Source of the DNA: a virus
Reading direction: 5' to 3' (one strand)
IMG/VR virus record: IMGVR_UViG_3300020131_000101
Location: 1-64,000 of that record
Length of the DNA stretch: 64,000 nucleotides
Every line of letters starts with the position of its first letter. Positions within the stretch are counted from its first letter, which is position 1. Positions 45,221 through 62,239 of this stretch are shown piece by piece. Under the pieces are notes generated by a model that made no database searches, was not told the origin of the DNA, and saw only the letters and a program-made list of their open reading frames with translations. Made by a program: the position numbers and the translations under genes.

Positions 45221-45475
45221 TCAGGGAGATTCTTTATCGCCGACGCGACGGCCGTACTTCACATCACCGATTGGCGCCTCACCAAAGACCGTCGGGTTCA
45301 AGTCGTAGCGCGTGACTGCGCCGTCAAACTCGCTTTCAATAGCGCGGCAGCGCTCCGCCGGCGCGTAGCCTTGCTCTACCCACTTCTGCACCGCCTGTGG
45401 CGTCACACCCAGCCGATTCGCAAGTGCTGTTTGGCTTCCGGCAAGCTGCACTGCCCTGTTAATTCCAGTTTCCAT
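45221..45475 (-). CDS. Cro/YdaS-like repressor
   Basis: An 84-residue HTH protein, METGINRAVQLAGSQTALAN then RLGVTPQAVQKWVEQGYAPA, typical of Cro-like YdaS proteins. Divergent from cI across the shared operator region. The 145-bp stretch downstream up to the CII gene is AT-rich near its end (TTTTTGATATTTCTTTTTG on the plus strand) and may hold the CII leader. Confidence 0.85.
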   Translation of the reverse strand: METGINRAVQLAGSQTALANRLGVTPQAVQKWVEQGYAPAERCRAIESEFDGAVTRYDLNPTVFGEAPIGDVKYGRRVGDKESP

Positions 45476-45487
45476 GTGCAATCCGCA

Positions 45488-45570
45488 GTTGTATTACAAC
45501 TGTAGGTTACAACAAAAAGTGCCTTGCTACAACTTATATTTGCAGTGCGCTTTACAACCAATGCTTGTAA
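45488..45570. promoter_or_regulatory. cI-cro operator region
   Basis: A perfect palindrome GTTGTA-T-TACAAC (45488-45500) is followed by TACAAC half-sites at 45508, 45528 and 45553, and by TTACAA-N7-TTGTAA (45552-45570). This is the expected binding array for CI and Cro. Promoters for both directions lie within it; TATATT at 45535-45540 is a possible -10 for cI. Confidence 0.8.
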
Positions 45571-45589
45571 CCTCTTGGGGATGGAAACA

Positions 45590-46276
45590 ATGGCAAATCG
45601 AATATCTCTTGCGTTGCAGAAAAAGAACGGCGGGAATCAGTCCGAAATGGCAAGGTTTATCGGCGTATCACCGCAAGCGGTGCAGAAATGGATCGCCGGC
45701 GATGCAGTGCCACGCGGCGCCAACCTGCAGAAGGCGGCCGAGTTTCTAGGCGTGCCCGCCTCGTACTTGGTATTCGGGGATAAGGGCCGAGTGGAGATGT
45801 TGCAAGCCCTCAACGAAGTGCGTAAGCCTGTCAGCGAGGTCGATGACGCGCCAGAGGTCATGGGAAACCAACGCTGGCTACCGGTCGTGGGAGTTGTTCA
45901 AGCAGGTCCCGACGGCCTGCTTACGATTGATGATCACCCAGTTGGCTTCGGCGACGGTGCTGTGCTCTATTGGGCGAAGTGCGAGAACGCTTATGCACTT
46001 AGAGTCCGCGGGGAAAGCATGAGTCCGCGCTACTTGCCAGGAGAGTTCGTAGCCGTTGATCCATGCTTTGAAGTGCAGCCTAGCCAGGAGGTCATTGTCA
46101 TCCTGAAAGATGGCACAAGGATGATCAAGCGCCTACTGTGGCAACGCGATGGTTTTGCCTGCTTTGAGTCGATCAATAAAGATTACAAAAACATCACCCT
46201 CGAGCTTGGAGAGATCGACGCACTCCATCGAGTCCTTGGAACAGTTCCGAGCTTCGCGTTCAAGGCAGCATACTAA
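45590..46276 (+). CDS. CI-like repressor with S24 autoprotease domain
   Basis: A 228-residue lytic repressor. The N-terminal HTH (NQSEMARFIGVSPQAVQKWI, residues 15-34) is followed by a linker. The C-terminal LexA-like domain has the nucleophile Ser in VRGESMSPRYLPGEFVAVDP (near 145) and the Lys in DGTRMIKRLLW (near 180). RecA-induced self-cleavage would allow SOS induction. Start at 45590 chosen for GGGGATGG upstream; 45581 is possible. Confidence 0.92.
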   Translation: MANRISLALQKKNGGNQSEMARFIGVSPQAVQKWIAGDAVPRGANLQKAAEFLGVPASYLVFGDKGRVEMLQALNEVRKPVSEVDDAPEVMGNQRWLPVVGVVQAGPDGLLTIDDHPVGFGDGAVLYWAKCENAYALRVRGESMSPRYLPGEFVAVDPCFEVQPSQEVIVILKDGTRMIKRLLWQRDGFACFESINKDYKNITLELGEIDALHRVLGTVPSFAFKAAY

Positions 46277-47061: not shown

Positions 47062-48041
47062 ATCGAAAGCTGATGAATCAACAAGTAAAAACTGTCGGCA
47101 TCTCCGAGATCGAGAACCAAATTGAGCTGACGTCGTTCACTCAGAACCTTGCCCATCTCAATTCATTCGTTCTGCAGCTTCAGAAAGAACTCCTTTCTTC
47201 CGAGCCAAACGACAAGCGCATCGCGCACTTCATTGATGAAGCGACGGCATTGCAAGGCACGCTGGTCACGCAGCTAGTCCGTGTCCTAGCGATCAGTGGT
47301 CATGATGCGCCAAACGTGAAGTATCTCGACCAGCTTCTGATAAAGCTAGATTACGTGCGGGACTTGGCAATTGACAGGATTAGAAGCCTGGAGGCGAAGC
47401 GAGATAAGTTAACCGAGGACTATCATGGCGAATTAAGACGTCTGGACGAGCGCCGAGACACGATTGCGGCTTGGCTTGCAGAAGGCAACAATGCCGAGCG
47501 GTTTAGCAAGGCTTTTTCCAAGAGCCCGCCATCCTTGGATGAAATTGAAAAGTTCATGGCTCAAGACGCAGGCCAGCCGCCTGACGGCCCTGTTGACAAC
47601 GGTGGATCTGGCGCGGAAGATGAAGAAATGGAAAAGCGAATTGCTAATCTCGAAAGTTTTGCGAATGATGCGCGCGAGCGCCTCGTTCGTATCGAGACTC
47701 GCCTTGACGGAATCGACATGCGCCTTAACGGCATTGAGTCCAAAATGGCAACTAAGGCTGACATCGCTGCCTTGGCTACAAAGACCGACATTGCGGGTAT
47801 GGCTACAAAGACGGACATTGCAGAAGTCCGAGTCGAAATTCACAAGATGGATTCCAGCATTAAGACCTGGATGATCGTTACTGTCGTGGGCCTCTTCCTC
47901 GGCTTCGGCGGCATGATCTTCACATTGGGCAACTTTCTGAAACCTCTGTCCACAGCCTCAATTTCGCAAAACGGTGAAATAGGCGTTCAGTTGCCTAAAG
48001 CTCACCAACCGTCTCAGCAACCACCTCCGGCGACAAAGTAG
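47040..48041 (+). CDS. coiled-coil membrane protein
   Basis: A 333-residue protein (GTG at 47040; ATG at 47046 or 47073 are possible starts). It is mostly helical. Around residues 200-265 there are heptad-like repeats MATKADIAALATKTDIAGMA, in the style of trimeric coiled-coil stalks. One transmembrane helix (MIVTVVGLFLGFGGMIFTLG) lies near 280-300, with a short Pro-rich tail outside. It overlaps the nuclease gene. Function unknown; possibly a surface exclusion factor. Confidence 0.7.
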   Translation: MGMAKEVDRKLMNQQVKTVGISEIENQIELTSFTQNLAHLNSFVLQLQKELLSSEPNDKRIAHFIDEATALQGTLVTQLVRVLAISGHDAPNVKYLDQLLIKLDYVRDLAIDRIRSLEAKRDKLTEDYHGELRRLDERRDTIAAWLAEGNNAERFSKAFSKSPPSLDEIEKFMAQDAGQPPDGPVDNGGSGAEDEEMEKRIANLESFANDARERLVRIETRLDGIDMRLNGIESKMATKADIAALATKTDIAGMATKTDIAEVRVEIHKMDSSIKTWMIVTVVGLFLGFGGMIFTLGNFLKPLSTASISQNGEIGVQLPKAHQPSQQPPPATK

Positions 48042-48059
48042 ACTTCCATTTGACGTAGA

Positions 48060-48082
48060 AGCCCGCTGCGAGCGGGCTTTTT
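48060..48082 (+). terminator. rho-independent terminator
   Basis: AGCCCGCT-GCG-AGCGGGCT followed by five T, 19 bp after the coiled-coil gene stop. Ends the cI module and insulates the small RNA unit downstream. Confidence 0.9.
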
Positions 48083-48088
48083 CATTTC

Positions 48089-48094
48089 TATAAT
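48089..48094 (+). promoter_or_regulatory. -10 element of the tRNA-like RNA
   Basis: Perfect TATAAT, seven bases before the first base of the folded RNA. No good -35 is visible at 17 bp because the preceding terminator occupies that position. Confidence 0.6.
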
Positions 48095-48100
48095 GACGCT

Positions 48101-48179
48101 GCTGGGCCGTGTCCTCTCGGTGGACGTCCTGGGGTCATCCCAGGAAGACGTGGAGGGTTCGAATCCCTCTCGCCCCAGC
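48101..48179 (+). ncRNA. tRNA-like small RNA
   Basis: The sequence folds as a cloverleaf. Acceptor: GCTGGG with CCCAGC, extended by CG/CG after one mismatch. D-arm: GTCC-TCTCGGT-GGAC. Anticodon-like arm: TCCTGGG-GTCAT-CCCAGGA. T-arm: GAGGG-TTCGAAT-CCCTC, with a canonical T-loop. Against a functional tRNA: the base before the anticodon triplet is G rather than U33, the acceptor is over-long, and no CCA is encoded in register. If read as an anticodon, the loop would be UCA. A TATAAT box lies just upstream and a terminator just downstream. Confidence 0.6.
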
Positions 48180-48187
48180 CACACCTA

Positions 48188-48211
48188 AGCCCGCCCAGAG
48201 CGGGCTTTTTT
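48188..48211 (+). terminator. rho-independent terminator of the small RNA
   Basis: AGCCCGC-CCAGA-GCGGGCT followed by T6, nine bases after the tRNA-like fold. Confidence 0.9.
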
Positions 48212-48248
48212 ACGTCCACATAAATTTTCCACATTTCAATTTAAGCGC

Positions 48249-48319
48249 TACAACTTTTTCACCCCTTATTACAACTTTTACTTGCAATACAGAATCTGCT
48301 GTTGTAACCTGTAGTTGTA
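48249..48319. promoter_or_regulatory. second CI/Cro-type operator array (rightward early operon)
   Basis: TACAAC half-sites at 48249 and 48270, and GTTGTA at 48301 and 48314. GTTGTAACCTGTAGTTGTAAT (from 48301) differs at only two bases from the reverse complement of the cI-cro operator segment ATTACAACTGTAGGTTACAAC (45493-45513). It lies just ahead of the gene at 48371. Confidence 0.8.
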
Positions 48320-48370
48320 ATTAATGCCGAGCAGCATGCATTCAGTTGAGCAACTTGATCGGGGGGTGGG

Positions 48371-48673
48371 ATGAAAGGGAAACATGCAGCAACGCCGTGG
48401 CACTGCAAGCAATTGGTAGGCGTGGTTGAACGCGGCTTTGCAATCTTCCACACCAAGGAAAAGGACACTACCAAGACGACGCATCGCATTGACGATAACG
48501 GCGAGTTTTCCAAGGAAGATGCTGAATTCATCGTCCGCGCCTGCAATGCTCACGATGATCTGGTGAAGGCGTTGCGGGAATATGTGGAGCGGCATGAGGC
48601 GGAGTGTGATCCGTCCGGCTTGCCTGAATACGATCAGGCTCGCTCCGCCCTCGCCAAAGCAGGTGCCGCATGA
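48371..48673 (+). CDS. phage early protein, hypothetical
   Basis: A 100-residue protein of a type frequent at the head of phage early operons: a beta N-terminal half (WHCKQLVGVVERGFAIFHTK) then DAEFIVRACNAHDDLVKALR. A GGGGGTGGG stretch precedes the ATG. Function unknown. Confidence 0.75.
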   Translation: MKGKHAATPWHCKQLVGVVERGFAIFHTKEKDTTKTTHRIDDNGEFSKEDAEFIVRACNAHDDLVKALREYVERHEAECDPSGLPEYDQARSALAKAGAA

Positions 48674-49233: not shown

Positions 49234-49501
49234 AGGCGGGATGAATGCGCGCTGGATAGCCATGCGCTGCAAGGAGCCTTTCTTCTGGCGATTCCTTGAG
49301 GAGGCGTTCAGCGAGGAAGTCGAGAGCGAGGAGGCCGCCGTTTCTGTCGTCTATATCTACGGTGGCGTCAGATCGCGCGCGGAGTTCGACATTGATCCGG
49401 CCGCGGCGGATCGCTTTCACATCGTATTCCGCCGTCCTTTTGCCGACTACTCGGATCGGCTCGCATCGCAACAAAACAATCGAAACAGGGAGTTCGTATG
49501 A
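49211..49501 (+). CDS. phage hypothetical protein
   Basis: A 96-residue protein starting MSGTGASKGGMNARWIAMRC at 49211 with GGAGGGC upstream. Compact alpha/beta pattern (KEPFFWRFLEEAFSEEVESE, FHIVFRRPFADYSDRLASQQ). Family not recognised. Confidence 0.6.
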   Translation: MSGTGASKGGMNARWIAMRCKEPFFWRFLEEAFSEEVESEEAAVSVVYIYGGVRSRAEFDIDPAAADRFHIVFRRPFADYSDRLASQQNNRNREFV

Positions 49502-49758
49502 AAACAGCCCAAGAAGCCGTCGGCTATGCCGTCAATTTTCTCTTCTCGCCCAGCGAGAAGTTGCTGAAAACCGATCCGACGATGGCGGAACTCGGCGCCG
49601 ACAGTCTCGACATGATCGAACTCGCAATGCATGTAGAGGACGAGCTCGGGATCATCATCGTCGACCAGGACATTCCGACCAACCTCGAACTGCGCGTTTC
49701 CCAATACGCGGAGCAGATCGAGAAGCTCATCCCCGCCAAGAACAAAGTTCCTGCCTAA
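49498..49758 (+). CDS. acyl carrier protein
   Basis: An 86-residue acyl carrier protein. MAELGADSLDMIELAMHVED contains the DSL motif whose Ser (near residue 38) takes the 4'-phosphopantetheine arm; LGIIIVDQDIPTNLELRVSQ forms the acidic helix III region. Length and motif are standard. It is embedded in a phage early operon with 4-nt coupling to the upstream gene and 9 nt before rdgC, far from any fatty-acid genes. Likely to carry acyl groups for a host enzyme or to act as a protein partner. Confidence 0.88.
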   Translation: MKTAQEAVGYAVNFLFSPSEKLLKTDPTMAELGADSLDMIELAMHVEDELGIIIVDQDIPTNLELRVSQYAEQIEKLIPAKNKVPA

Positions 49759-49767
49759 GGTGCCGCC

Positions 49768-50673
49768 ATGTGGTTCAAGAACATTCAAATCTACATGCTG
49801 ACCGCACCGTGGTCGATGACATCCGAGCAGCTGGAGGCCGCGCTGGCGCCGCAGGCATTTGTCCCCTGCGGTAGTCTAGATCTGCAGACGCAAGGCTGGG
49901 TCTCGCCCCGCGACAACGGCATGCTGGTGCACACGGTCAACCGCCAGATGCTGCTGCAGCTCGGCACAGAGAAAAAGCTCCTACCGGCCAAGGTCATTGC
50001 CGCGAAGACGAAGGAACGCGTTGACGAACTGGAAGTGCAGCAAGGCTTCAGGCCTGGCCGCAAACAGATCCGCGAGATCAAGGAACAGGTAACGGACGAG
50101 CTCTTGCCGCAGGCTTTCGCCGTCCGCCGGGACACGCGTGTCTGGATCGATCCGGTACATGGGCTGCTGGTTGTCGATTCTGCGGCACCAGCGCGCGCCG
50201 ATGAAGTCTTCAAGATGCTGCTCAAGTCCCTGGAAGTCCTCCCCTTCGCCGCACTGCGCACCGAGCGTTCGCCGCTGTCCGCGATGACCGACTGGCTTGC
50301 TGCTGACGAAGCGCCGGCCGGATTCACCGTCGACCAGGACACAGAACTGCGCTCCAGCGGCGAAGGTAAGGCTACCGTGCGCTACCTGCGCCACACCCTG
50401 GAGCCAACCGACATCAACCGCCACATCGCCGCCGGCAAGCAGGTTACACGCCTCGCCCTCACATGGGCTGACCGTGTCTCTTTTGTGCTGACCGAGAAGC
50501 TGGCGATCAAGCGTATCGCGCCGCTGGATGTCCTAAAGGAAAACACCGACTCCAGCACGCAGAACGAGGATGAGCGCTTCGATAGTGACTTCCTCCTGAT
50601 GGCTGGTGAACTGGCCAAGCTAGTTGACAACCTTGTCACGGCGCTTGGCGGGCAAGAAGCCCAAAGCAAGTAA
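49768..50673 (+). CDS. rdgC: recombination-associated protein RdgC
   Basis: A 301-residue RdgC homologue: [75 protein letters not shown] and the C-terminal [20 protein letters not shown] all fit. RdgC forms a ring around duplex DNA and restrains RecA. On a phage it may protect replicating DNA or set recombination mode. Confidence 0.94.
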
Positions 50674-50713
50674 TACCGGCTTTACATCTACAACGAGATC
50701 GGCAGGGAGAACC

Positions 50714-52744
50714 ATGATCACCACTGAAGTTCGCCATTTTCACTTCTGCTGCGGCATCGGCGGCGCAGCCAAGGGCTTCAACAAGGCAAACCCACGCGTT
50801 GGCAACGTGCAGGCGACCTTCCGCTGCCTCGGCGGCGTAGACGTCGACGCATCTGCAATCCGAGACTTCAATCGTCTGGTCGGGGTGCCGGGCACGGTAA
50901 TGGACCTGTTCACTCGAGACCAGTACATCCGGTTCCACTGTAAGGAGCCGCCGCCAGAGTGGCGCGAGATGGGGCCGGCAGACATCCGGCGCGCCGCCGG
51001 TAACGAGCGCCCGCATATCGTATTCATCTCATCCCCGTGCAAGGGTGCTTCCGGGCTGCTATCCGAAGCGACCAGCAAGACGCCAAAGTACCAGGCGCTC
51101 AACGAGCTGACGCTGCGCTGTATCTGGCTGATGTCCGAGGCTTGGCAGGACGACCCGGTAGACCTGATCGTGTTCGAGAACGTGCCGAGACTGGCCACAC
51201 GCGGCCGGCACTTGTTGGACCAGATCAACCAGCTCCTGCAGCGCTACGGCTACGCGGTTGCTGAAACGACACACGACTGCGGCGAACTGGGTGGTCTGGC
51301 GCAGTCCCGCAAGCGCTTCCTCCTGGTCGCGCGCCACGCCGAGAAAGTGCCGCCGTTCCTGTATGAGCCTGAAAAGAAGAGCTTGCGTGCCGTCGGCGAC
51401 ATCCTCGGCCGCATGCCGTTCCCGGGTGACGAGGTAGGCGGCCCGATGCACCGAATTCCGCGCCTGCAGTGGAAAACGTGGGTTCGCCTGGCGTTCGTCG
51501 AAGCCGGCAGCGACTGGCGCAGTCTGAACAAGCTGGCTGTCGAAAATGGCCACCTTCGCGACTATCTGATCCTGCCGGAATACCGTTCTGACTATCTGGG
51601 CGTCAACCGCTGGGAAGAACCGGTCGGAGCGGTGTCCGGACGTGCCGGACCGAGCAACGGCGCCTATTCAGTGGCCGACCCACGTTTCGATCAGTCCAAG
51701 AAATGGAACGACGGGCAAGCTTATGGTGTGCGAATGTGGCAGGAGGCAACAGGGACGATTGCAGGGCAGCAGACTCCAGGTCAAGGCGCATATTCGGTAG
51801 CGGATCCGCGCTCCAGTGGCGAGCACCACAAGAACGTGTACCGAATTGTCGCGTGGGACCAGGCATCGGGCACCGTAACCGGCGGATTCAAGGCAAGCAG
51901 TGGCGGAGGTGTCGCCGATCCTCGCCCGCCATCCGGACCACTGTTCAGCAAGTATGCGGTGACCGAGTGGAATCAGCGGACAGGTACGGTGATCGGCGGC
52001 GATGACTCTGGCGCCTACGCTGTCGCGGATCCTCGCACGGGAAAATCCAGCCATTCCGGATTCGGTGTGACCGAATGGAACGAACCGGCCGGGACCGTGG
52101 CCGGAGAATCCCTGCCGTCGAACGGACAGTTTGCCGTCGCCGATCCACGTCCAGGGTGGGACCGGCACGCCGGCAACCTGGTCGTGACCGACTGGAATGG
52201 CCCCTCGAACACGGTAATTGCAGGCGGCAAGGGTGTTCAAGGCGGATGGCTGTCCGTCGCAGACCCGCGCACTGGCATGACCCGTGAAAAGGGCGACAAC
52301 TACCTGACGGCCGGGCATTACGGTGTGATCCCGTGGGACCAGCCGAGTGGCGCGGTCAGCGCGGCAGCCGGGCACGACAACGGCCGCTGGTCGGTCGCTG
52401 ACCCCCGCATCGACGTCCTCCCGGCGCTCGATCAGAAGACTGTGGCAATTATCCGCGCGCTCGACGGTACGTGGCACCGCCCGTTCACCACCTTGGAGCT
52501 GGCGGCCCTGCAGTCGCTGATCGAGCCGGAAGAATTCCTCCTGCTCGACGGCATGAGCGACAGCCTATGGCGTGAGCACATTGGAAACCTCGTGCCGCCG
52601 GATGCCGCGACCGCTATTGCCGACGTTATGGGTACAACGCTTCTCCTCGCGTGGTCCGGCGAAACGTTCGTTCTCAGCGCCACGCCGGTATGGGTTCGCA
52701 ATGTCGCGATTGCGCTGTCTCTTTCCCAGAAGGACGCAGCATGA
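50714..52744 (+). CDS. cytosine-5 DNA methyltransferase with seven tandem repeats
   Basis: A 676-residue Dcm-type enzyme. Motif I is HFCCGIGGAAKGFNKA (8-23), motif IV SSPCKGASG with catalytic Cys near 107 (Lys in place of the usual Gln), motif VI VFENVPRL near 153, motif VIII QSRKRFLLVA near 196. Residues about 288-566 hold seven repeats of about 39 residues ending in VADPR (for example YGVRMWQEATGTIAG then GAYSVADPR). The C-terminus has TTLELAALQSL and HIGNLVPPDAATAIAD (motifs IX-X). Start at 50714 follows GGGAGAACC. Confidence 0.9.
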   Translation: MITTEVRHFHFCCGIGGAAKGFNKANPRVGNVQATFRCLGGVDVDASAIRDFNRLVGVPGTVMDLFTRDQYIRFHCKEPPPEWREMGPADIRRAAGNERPHIVFISSPCKGASGLLSEATSKTPKYQALNELTLRCIWLMSEAWQDDPVDLIVFENVPRLATRGRHLLDQINQLLQRYGYAVAETTHDCGELGGLAQSRKRFLLVARHAEKVPPFLYEPEKKSLRAVGDILGRMPFPGDEVGGPMHRIPRLQWKTWVRLAFVEAGSDWRSLNKLAVENGHLRDYLILPEYRSDYLGVNRWEEPVGAVSGRAGPSNGAYSVADPRFDQSKKWNDGQAYGVRMWQEATGTIAGQQTPGQGAYSVADPRSSGEHHKNVYRIVAWDQASGTVTGGFKASSGGGVADPRPPSGPLFSKYAVTEWNQRTGTVIGGDDSGAYAVADPRTGKSSHSGFGVTEWNEPAGTVAGESLPSNGQFAVADPRPGWDRHAGNLVVTDWNGPSNTVIAGGKGVQGGWLSVADPRTGMTREKGDNYLTAGHYGVIPWDQPSGAVSAAAGHDNGRWSVADPRIDVLPALDQKTVAIIRALDGTWHRPFTTLELAALQSLIEPEEFLLLDGMSDSLWREHIGNLVPPDAATAIADVMGTTLLLAWSGETFVLSATPVWVRNVAIALSLSQKDAA

Positions 52745-60943: not shown

Positions 60944-62239
60944 TTACCCACGTCTCCCAACAATCTCCTCAAGCTTGGCATCGAGACGGGAAAGCCACTC
61001 CCGGCGTTCCTTGTCGTAGGTGTGGCGGTTATACACACCCTTCACACCAGGCTGCATATGCCCAAGAATCGCCTCGGCAACGGGGTCAGGGCAGCCCAGC
61101 GCCGCAAGTAGCGTCCGCGAGGTACGGCGCAGATCATGAGGCGCCCAGTGCGTCACTGGTAACCGCGGCCGCTCCTGCTCTGGTCGCGTCTTCGAATATG
61201 GCATGTGGTACCAAACCGCCGTCTGTATCATTTTCTGCTGCACGTGCTCAACTTCTCCACGCATCGCAGGGAAAATGTACCCCCCCTTCGCCGTGGATAG
61301 CCTGCGTCGCACGATCCTCTCCGCGCGACCGATCAGCGGCACACGTAGGTCGGTGGCATTCGATATGCGTGCGTTCTTAGTCTTGGCCTTCGGGATGGTC
61401 CACCACAGTCCGTCCGCCTCTTCAGTGATTTCTTTTGCCTCCATCGCACATATTTCGGAGCCGCGCGTGCATGTCCAGGAATACAGCGTCAGGGCGTCCT
61501 CGATAGTGCGCGTAAAGTTCGGCAGCCAGGCAAAGAGATCCCGTAATTCTTGCTCCGAAAGGTGCCGCTTCGCAGTGCCGATCTTCTCGCCAGCAATCGC
61601 CTTGCCCTTGCTGCGGAGTTTCCCCCGTAAGATTTGCCGCCACCAGTTCGGCGTCGTGTCAGGCAACTTCCCTGCGTCGATGGAATAGTCCCATGCTGCT
61701 GCCAATTCAGTGCGCAACTTGGCGCACTGCACCGGATGATCGAAATGGCGCTCGAGCAAATCGAATGCGTTGGCTCGTGTGTAGGTAGCCGCCGGCAGAT
61801 CTGCGTGGTCGCCGAGCATCGTATCAAACGTCCTGCGCACCTCTTTCGCCCCTTTGGGCTTGCGATGGCGATCGATGTATCCGTCCAGGTACAGGTCACA
61901 CACCTTCCGAACAGTAAAGGCAGCGTTGCGCTTCTCTTCGCGACGCAGCTCCACTGCGGCTCGCGCCTCGACACGAGCGTTCCGCCGCTCAAGCGCCGGA
62001 TCCGCTCCATTCTTCCGAGCTTTCGACAACTCCTCCCATTCGGACATGGCTTTGGCGATCGACATGGCCGGCCATTCCCCGATCTTGACCTGGCGCATTT
62101 TCTGATCGACTGGGCTCTTGTAACGGTAGGTCCATGCCTTGGTACTATTCGTGGCTTCCAGGCGTAGCCCGGGTGCGCCATCAATGGTAATGTGTGCACC
62201 CGGCGCCAGCAGCTTTGCTTCCCGCGCGTCGAAATTCAT
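60944..62239 (-). CDS. int: tyrosine-type integrase
   Basis: A 431-residue P4-type site-specific recombinase. The N-terminal DUF4102-like arm domain is at residues 1-90 (LEATNSTKAWTYRYKSPVDQ). The catalytic Arg is in SWTCTRGSEICAME near 258, then HDLRRTSRTLLAALG near 367-381, GH in AILGHMQPG, and the tyrosine nucleophile in VYNRHTYDKERREWL near 407. It faces away from mutS, 155 bp from its start, so attR should lie within that interval. Confidence 0.94.
   Translation of the reverse strand: MNFDAREAKLLAPGAHITIDGAPGLRLEATNSTKAWTYRYKSPVDQKMRQVKIGEWPAMSIAKAMSEWEELSKARKNGADPALERRNARVEARAAVELRREEKRNAAFTVRKVCDLYLDGYIDRHRKPKGAKEVRRTFDTMLGDHADLPAATYTRANAFDLLERHFDHPVQCAKLRTELAAAWDYSIDAGKLPDTTPNWWRQILRGKLRSKGKAIAGEKIGTAKRHLSEQELRDLFAWLPNFTRTIEDALTLYSWTCTRGSEICAMEAKEITEEADGLWWTIPKAKTKNARISNATDLRVPLIGRAERIVRRRLSTAKGGYIFPAMRGEVEHVQQKMIQTAVWYHMPYSKTRPEQERPRLPVTHWAPHDLRRTSRTLLAALGCPDPVAEAILGHMQPGVKGVYNRHTYDKERREWLSRLDAKLEEIVGRRG

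What the first reader, a model, noticed from the sequence alone, without database searches (positions are those of the whole stretch)
48089..48211. Free-standing tRNA-like small RNA between two terminators
Between the cI module and the rightward early operon is a 79-nt cloverleaf with a canonical T-arm, its own TATAAT box and its own terminator, and another terminator insulating it upstream. It breaks tRNA rules (no U33, over-long acceptor, no CCA in register) while keeping T-loop and D-loop features. If the loop acts as an anticodon it would read UGA. It may be a regulatory tRNA mimic, a suppressor-type tRNA relic or an RNA decoy made in lysogens.
Basis: partly seen in the sequence, partly recalled or inferred. 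Interest (0 to 1): 0.72.

Follow-up and report, generated by a model that had tools for sequence, protein, structure and literature searches.

The report
Orphan phage tRNA-like RNA gene
Beside its lysogeny-control genes this bacterial virus carries a tiny, self-contained gene that would make an RNA folded like a tRNA but unable to read codons; the fold is far from chance, yet no relative of it was found, so its function remains open.

Summary
Bases 48101-48179 form a 79-nt cloverleaf with 24 Watson-Crick pairs, no G-U pairs, a canonical T-arm and GG in the D-loop. A cloverleaf descriptor finds only this site in the window and none in 400 randomised windows. Rfam's tRNA-Sec model matches it below its cut-off (28.4 bits; E 4e-5 for the record). 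RF00005 and default ARAGORN miss it. The only TATAAT in 64 kb puts a start at G48101, the first acceptor base, but there is no -35 box. Terminators lie at 48057-48081 and 48187-48207. It sits where lambda keeps rexAB, between the cI operon and the rightward early operon.
It should not decode: a closed 7-bp anticodon hairpin, no U33, U37, and an acceptor that pairs over the discriminator. 'No CCA in register' is only partly right. The integrase is 13 kb away, so attP is unlikely. UGA suppression is unlikely, since 30 of 50 genes end in UGA.
No homolog appeared in viral contigs, phages, plasmids, 46 related phage records or about 1,160 bacterial genomes, so covariation cannot be tested. Best reading: a tRNA-derived small-RNA moron acting as a non-decoding tRNA mimic. 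Main rival: a recent tRNA relic.

The parts
48057..48081 (+). Upstream intrinsic terminator, ends the cI/moron transcript after the 47040-48041 gene
   Evidence: 11-pair stem, 3-nt loop, T-run; 24-nt direct repeat with the downstream terminator
48089..48094 (+). TATAAT -10 box; predicted start at G48101
   Evidence: only TATAAT on either strand of the window, 4.7 expected; no -35 match
48101..48179 (+). tRNA-like cloverleaf (79 nt); 48179-48181 reads CCA
   Evidence: sequence; descriptor scan 1 in window, 0 in 400 randomised windows; RF01852 28.4 bits, E 4.3e-5
48101..48109 (+). 5' acceptor strand GCUGGGCCG, pairs with 48171-48179 (8 of 9)
   Evidence: sequence
48111..48125 (+). compact D-arm, 4 bp, 7-nt loop UCUCGGU
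   Evidence: sequence
48127..48145 (+). closed anticodon-like hairpin, 7 bp, loop GUCAU (7-nt reading GGUCAUC, UCA)
   Evidence: sequence
48153..48169 (+). canonical T-arm GAGGG-UUCGAAU-CCCUC
   Evidence: sequence; 3' half about 90% alike to tRNA-Ser 3' ends
48171..48179 (+). 3' acceptor strand CGCCCCAGC, pairs with 48101-48109
   Evidence: sequence
48187..48207 (+). downstream intrinsic terminator of the element
   Evidence: near-identical terminators in L003 and, directly after a cI gene, in L019

Best explanation
A stand-alone small-RNA gene derived from a tRNA, carried as a moron in the rex position of a temperate phage (between the cI operon and the early operon). Shown: a cloverleaf far beyond chance, with an intact T-arm and D-loop GG, a uniquely placed TATAAT, flanking terminators, and several features that rule out ordinary decoding. 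Inferred: RNA polymerase starts at G48101, so the RNA needs no 5' trimming, and stops at about 48213. The closed anticodon hairpin and the acceptor paired over the discriminator would keep it out of translation while the elbow still binds tRNA-handling proteins (RNase P, elbow-modifying enzymes, or tRNA-targeting defence nucleases). It would thus act as a stable tRNA mimic or decoy.
For: Descriptor hit unique in the window and 0 in 400 randomised windows. RF01852 E 4.3e-5. Global alignment to tRNAs beats every shuffle (28.2 against a null maximum of 22.7). All 24 pairs are Watson-Crick. The anticodon stem is two pairs longer than in a standard tRNA, which decay would not produce. The only TATAAT is placed exactly for a start at the acceptor's first base. 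Two strong terminators. Position beside cI 45524-46276 and cro 45221-45481, with moron-like genes in between.
Against: No homolog in any collection searched, so there is no conservation or covariation. No -35 box. Fold energy of the cloverleaf alone is unremarkable. The descriptor was written after seeing the element. No transcript data. The decoy step rests on anatomy only.
Confidence: 0.42

Rival explanations
1. Relic of a phage-borne tRNA: a recently inactivated tRNA gene that kept its terminator and most of its fold, with no present function.
For: Relatives of this phage carry ordinary tRNA genes, including tRNA-Gly with compact D-arms like this one. The 3' half is close to tRNA-Ser or tRNA-Pro and still ends in CCA. 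C107xC173 mismatch and extra U170. No homologs.
Against: All helices are intact and the anticodon stem has grown to 7 bp. Own -10 box placed on the acceptor's first base. Flanked by terminators and not part of a tRNA cluster; no other tRNA in the record.
Confidence: 0.33
2. Immunity-region base-pairing RNA that works like the C4/CI RNAs of P1, P7 and P4, pairing with mRNA through its loops (GUCAU is complementary to AUGAC).
For: Location by the immunity genes. C4 RNA is a ~77-nt immunity RNA processed by RNase P (PMC5320573).
Against: No RF01695 match up to E 10. Complements of the hairpin loop occur at chance frequency, and none lies on the sense strand of a phage gene as read here.
Confidence: 0.12
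3. Working unorthodox tRNA with anticodon UCA (opal suppressor or selenocysteine type).
For: Best Rfam model is tRNA-Sec. Relaxed ARAGORN reads TCA. G178 could be a Ser/Sec-type discriminator followed by CCA. Elongated anticodon stems exist in tRNA-Pyl (PMC7609411).
Against: G33 and U37 in the loop, no long variable arm, below the RF01852 cut-off. UGA ends 30 of 50 genes.
Confidence: 0.04
4. Host tRNA 3' fragment at the attachment site (attP).
For: Relatives carry tRNA 3' halves that look like att sites, e.g. L020, L027, L040.
Against: Integrase is at 60944-62239, 13 kb away. The segment occurs once in the window. The matching tRNA 3' ends differ by an indel.
Confidence: 0.03
5. Chance fold between two terminators.
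For: Energy z-score of the cloverleaf alone is -1.45.
Against: 0 in 400 randomised windows and the CM E-value.
Confidence: 0.03

Closest known systems
Phage-encoded tRNA genes, including compact-D-arm tRNA-Gly(UCC) of related phages (L052, L190, L191)
   Same: Cloverleaf, T-arm, compact D-arm, 3' half
   Different: Closed 7-bp anticodon hairpin, no U33, overlong mismatched acceptor, own terminators, not in a tRNA cluster
Bacterial tRNA-Sec (RF01852) and allo-tRNAs
   Same: 8-nt 3' acceptor strand, G before CCA, UCA in the loop, best Rfam score
   Different: No long variable arm, below cut-off, no U33, two mismatches in an 8-bp acceptor
C4/CI immunity RNAs of P1, P7 and P4 (RF01695)
   Same: About 80-nt structured RNA in the immunity region; C4 is handled by RNase P
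   Different: No RF01695 match, four-way tRNA-type fold, no sense target found in the phage
tRNA-Pyl and type I mitochondrial tRNA-Ser (PMC7609411)
   Same: Elongated anticodon stem, one nucleotide between acceptor and D-stem, compact D-loop
   Different: Those keep a decoding loop; this keeps T-arm and GG but has no U33
T4 RNAs C and D (from memory)
   Same: Stable phage small RNAs of unknown role with tRNA connections
   Different: No sequence comparison made here; those lie within the T4 tRNA cluster

Membership tests
Canonical tRNA (RF00005) | Reaches the family's curated score (29 bits) | tested here: not met
   No match up to E 1 in the record; nothing at cut-offs in the window
Canonical tRNA (RF00005) | 7-nt anticodon loop with U33 and purine 37 | tested here: not met
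   Loop GGUCAUC has G33 and U37 and closes to a 5-nt loop
Canonical tRNA (RF00005) | T-arm with 5 bp and UUCRANN loop, GG in D-loop | tested here: met
   48153-48169 and 48115-48121
Canonical tRNA (RF00005) | 7-bp acceptor with free discriminator and CCA | tested here: not met
   CCA at 48179-181 fits an 8-nt acceptor strand, but G178 and C179 are paired with C102 and G101
tRNA-Sec (RF01852) | Reaches the family's curated score (47 bits) | tested here: not met
   28.4 bits
tRNA-Sec (RF01852) | Long variable arm | tested here: not met
   7-nt unpaired variable region
tRNA-Sec (RF01852) | UCA anticodon in a usable loop | tested here: inconclusive
   UCA present at 48135-48137, but no U33
C4 antisense RNA (RF01695) | Match to the Rfam model | tested here: not met
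   Not among matches up to E 10 in 47900-48400
C4 antisense RNA (RF01695) | Loops complementary to a target leader in the phage | tested here: not met
   Only the anticodon-like loop was tested: complements at chance level, none read on the sense strand of a phage gene
attP tRNA fragment | Adjacent to integrase and identical to a host tRNA 3' end | tested here: not met
   Integrase 13 kb away; best tRNA 3' ends differ by an indel; host itself unknown
Expressed small RNA | A transcript of the predicted size | not testable with these tools
   no RNA-seq available

The most novel reading that the evidence does not exclude
A lysogen-expressed, leaderless tRNA mimic whose anticodon arm has been replaced by a closed hairpin and whose acceptor is sealed, used by a temperate phage in the rex slot to occupy host tRNA enzymes or tRNA-cutting defence systems.
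Probability: 0.2. Interest if true: 0.75.

Novelty: new variant of a known kind. Interest (0 to 1): 0.42.

Why it matters
Phage tRNA genes are usually read as translation helpers or as answers to tRNA-cutting defences. A stand-alone phage RNA that keeps the tRNA elbow but has lost decoding would be a direct candidate for a defence decoy or a regulator built from a tRNA. Such elements are invisible to standard tRNA finders and to Rfam cut-offs, so others could be overlooked.

Tried and rejected
attP fragment: integrase 13 kb away and no second copy. UGA suppressor: loop unfit and UGA the main stop. C4 RNA: no Rfam match and no sense target for the hairpin loop. Chance: descriptor null. Homolog hunts that led nowhere: blastn in phages found mainly the shared terminator; blastn in plasmids found nothing; strict patterns in genome contigs and viral contigs; a looser loop plus T-arm pattern gave 35 sites, none a homolog; the protein next to it and cI had no close viral relatives; the covariance model R1 over related loci, 46 phage records sharing the terminase, and three sets of bacterial genomes hit only ordinary tRNAs where the hits were identified (tRNA-Pro, tRNA-Gly), or nothing. 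A genome-contig search by a downstream protein gave six loci, none with the element.

Full report
What is there. The window is most of a 65,090-base IMG/VR virus record. Bases 48101-48179 form a 79-nt cloverleaf: acceptor GCUGGGCCG/CGCCCCAGC (8 of 9 pairs, one C-C mismatch), a compact D-arm with loop UCUCGGU, a 7-bp anticodon-like hairpin closed by GUCAU, a 7-nt variable region and a textbook T-arm. All 24 pairs are Watson-Crick.

Is it more than chance? A cloverleaf descriptor (T-arm with TTCRANN, perfect D- and anticodon stems, GG in the D-loop, acceptor with at most one mismatch) finds only this place in the window and none in 60 and then 400 first-order Markov versions of the window. In about 1 Mb of fetched viral and bacterial loci every other hit looks like a tRNA gene, apart from one tRNA-Pro 3' half at a probable att site. 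Caution: the descriptor was written after seeing the element, so it is generous to it. An independent test agrees: Rfam's tRNA-Sec model scores 28.4 bits, E 4.3e-5 for the record, though below its cut-off of 47. RF00005 and default ARAGORN miss it. Relaxed ARAGORN on a 2.5-kb stretch lists a TCA/SeC tRNA, but among five calls, so this is weak. Global alignment to 62 tRNAs beats 300 shuffles. Folding energy of the cloverleaf alone is not remarkable.

Gene signals. TATAAT at 48089-48094 is the only one on either strand of the window against 4.7 expected, and its spacing puts +1 on G48101, the first acceptor base. There is no -35 box, so the promoter is weak or regulated. Terminators lie at 48057-48081 and 48187-48207, 24-nt direct repeats of each other at 88%. 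A near-identical terminator follows the cI-like gene directly in L019, which suggests, but does not prove, that the genes and the element between cI and the second terminator are insertions.

Setting. Cro-like 45221-45481 (-) and cI 45524-46276 (+) are followed by a zinc-ribbon protein, a nuclease homologue and a coiled-coil protein, then the element, then a rightward early operon with RdgC and a C5-methylase. This mirrors lambda, where rexAB lies between cI and pL (from general knowledge). The integrase is at 60944-62239, so this is not attP, although relatives do carry tRNA 3' halves that look like att sites.

Can it decode? Unlikely. In the 7-nt register the loop is GGUCAUC: G33, UCA, U37. 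The loop also closes to 5 nt. Contrary to the finding, CCA (48179-181) is in register for an 8-nt 3' acceptor strand with G178 as discriminator, but C102 and G101 pair with G178 and C179. UGA ends 30 of 50 genes examined, so an opal suppressor would be costly.

Origin. The 3' half is about 90% alike to tRNA-Ser 3' ends. The covariance model's best cellular hits are tRNA-Pro and its best hits among related phages are tRNA-Gly(UCC), two of them with compact D-arms. No single parent is clear.

Relatives. None found: blastn in phages and plasmids, patterns, blastn in 399 genomes of the order of a Massilia genome, and covariance searches in those 399, in 398 genomes of the order of a Dokdonella genome and in 369 of its class. 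The large covariance runs used strict filters, and an empty answer there has no positive control beyond the window itself. Metagenome contigs could not be searched. Covariation is therefore untestable at present.

Judgement. Most likely a tRNA-derived, non-decoding small-RNA moron; mimic or decoy action is inference. The strongest rival is a recent relic; against it stand the intact helices and an anticodon stem longer than an ordinary parent tRNA would supply.

Noticed in passing
L028:1147-1243: Another rule-breaking tRNA-like element in a related phage: 13-bp acceptor, no CCA, no clear U33 loop; RF00005 scores its core at 35.8 bits.
   Followed up: partly
L028:1373-1456: Second odd tRNA-like element downstream; ARAGORN gives an undetermined isotype with 8-nt anticodon loop.
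   Followed up: no
L012:1772-1843: tRNA-Cys(GCA)-type call with an apparent 8-bp acceptor, short anticodon stem and no CCA.
   Followed up: partly
L039:1501-1659: RF00005 match stretched over 159 nt, as if a tRNA carried an insertion in its middle.
   Followed up: no
L052, L190, L191: Phage tRNA-Gly(UCC) genes with compact D-arms (ARAGORN places the anticodon at position 31 in L190 and L191).
   Followed up: partly
50624-52744: C5-methylase-like protein with many repeats of a V-A-D-P-R motif in its middle.
   Followed up: no
49498-49758: Small acyl-carrier-like protein (PP-binding domain) in the phage early operon next to rdgC.
   Followed up: no
48014-48184 (-) and 48088-48234 (-): Antisense ORFs read GREGFEPS and GERDSNPP, resembling spurious proteins often annotated on the reverse strand of tRNA genes (resemblance from memory).
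   Followed up: no
window 1-64000: TATAAT occurs once in 64 kb on both strands, against 4.7 expected from dinucleotide composition.
   Followed up: partly
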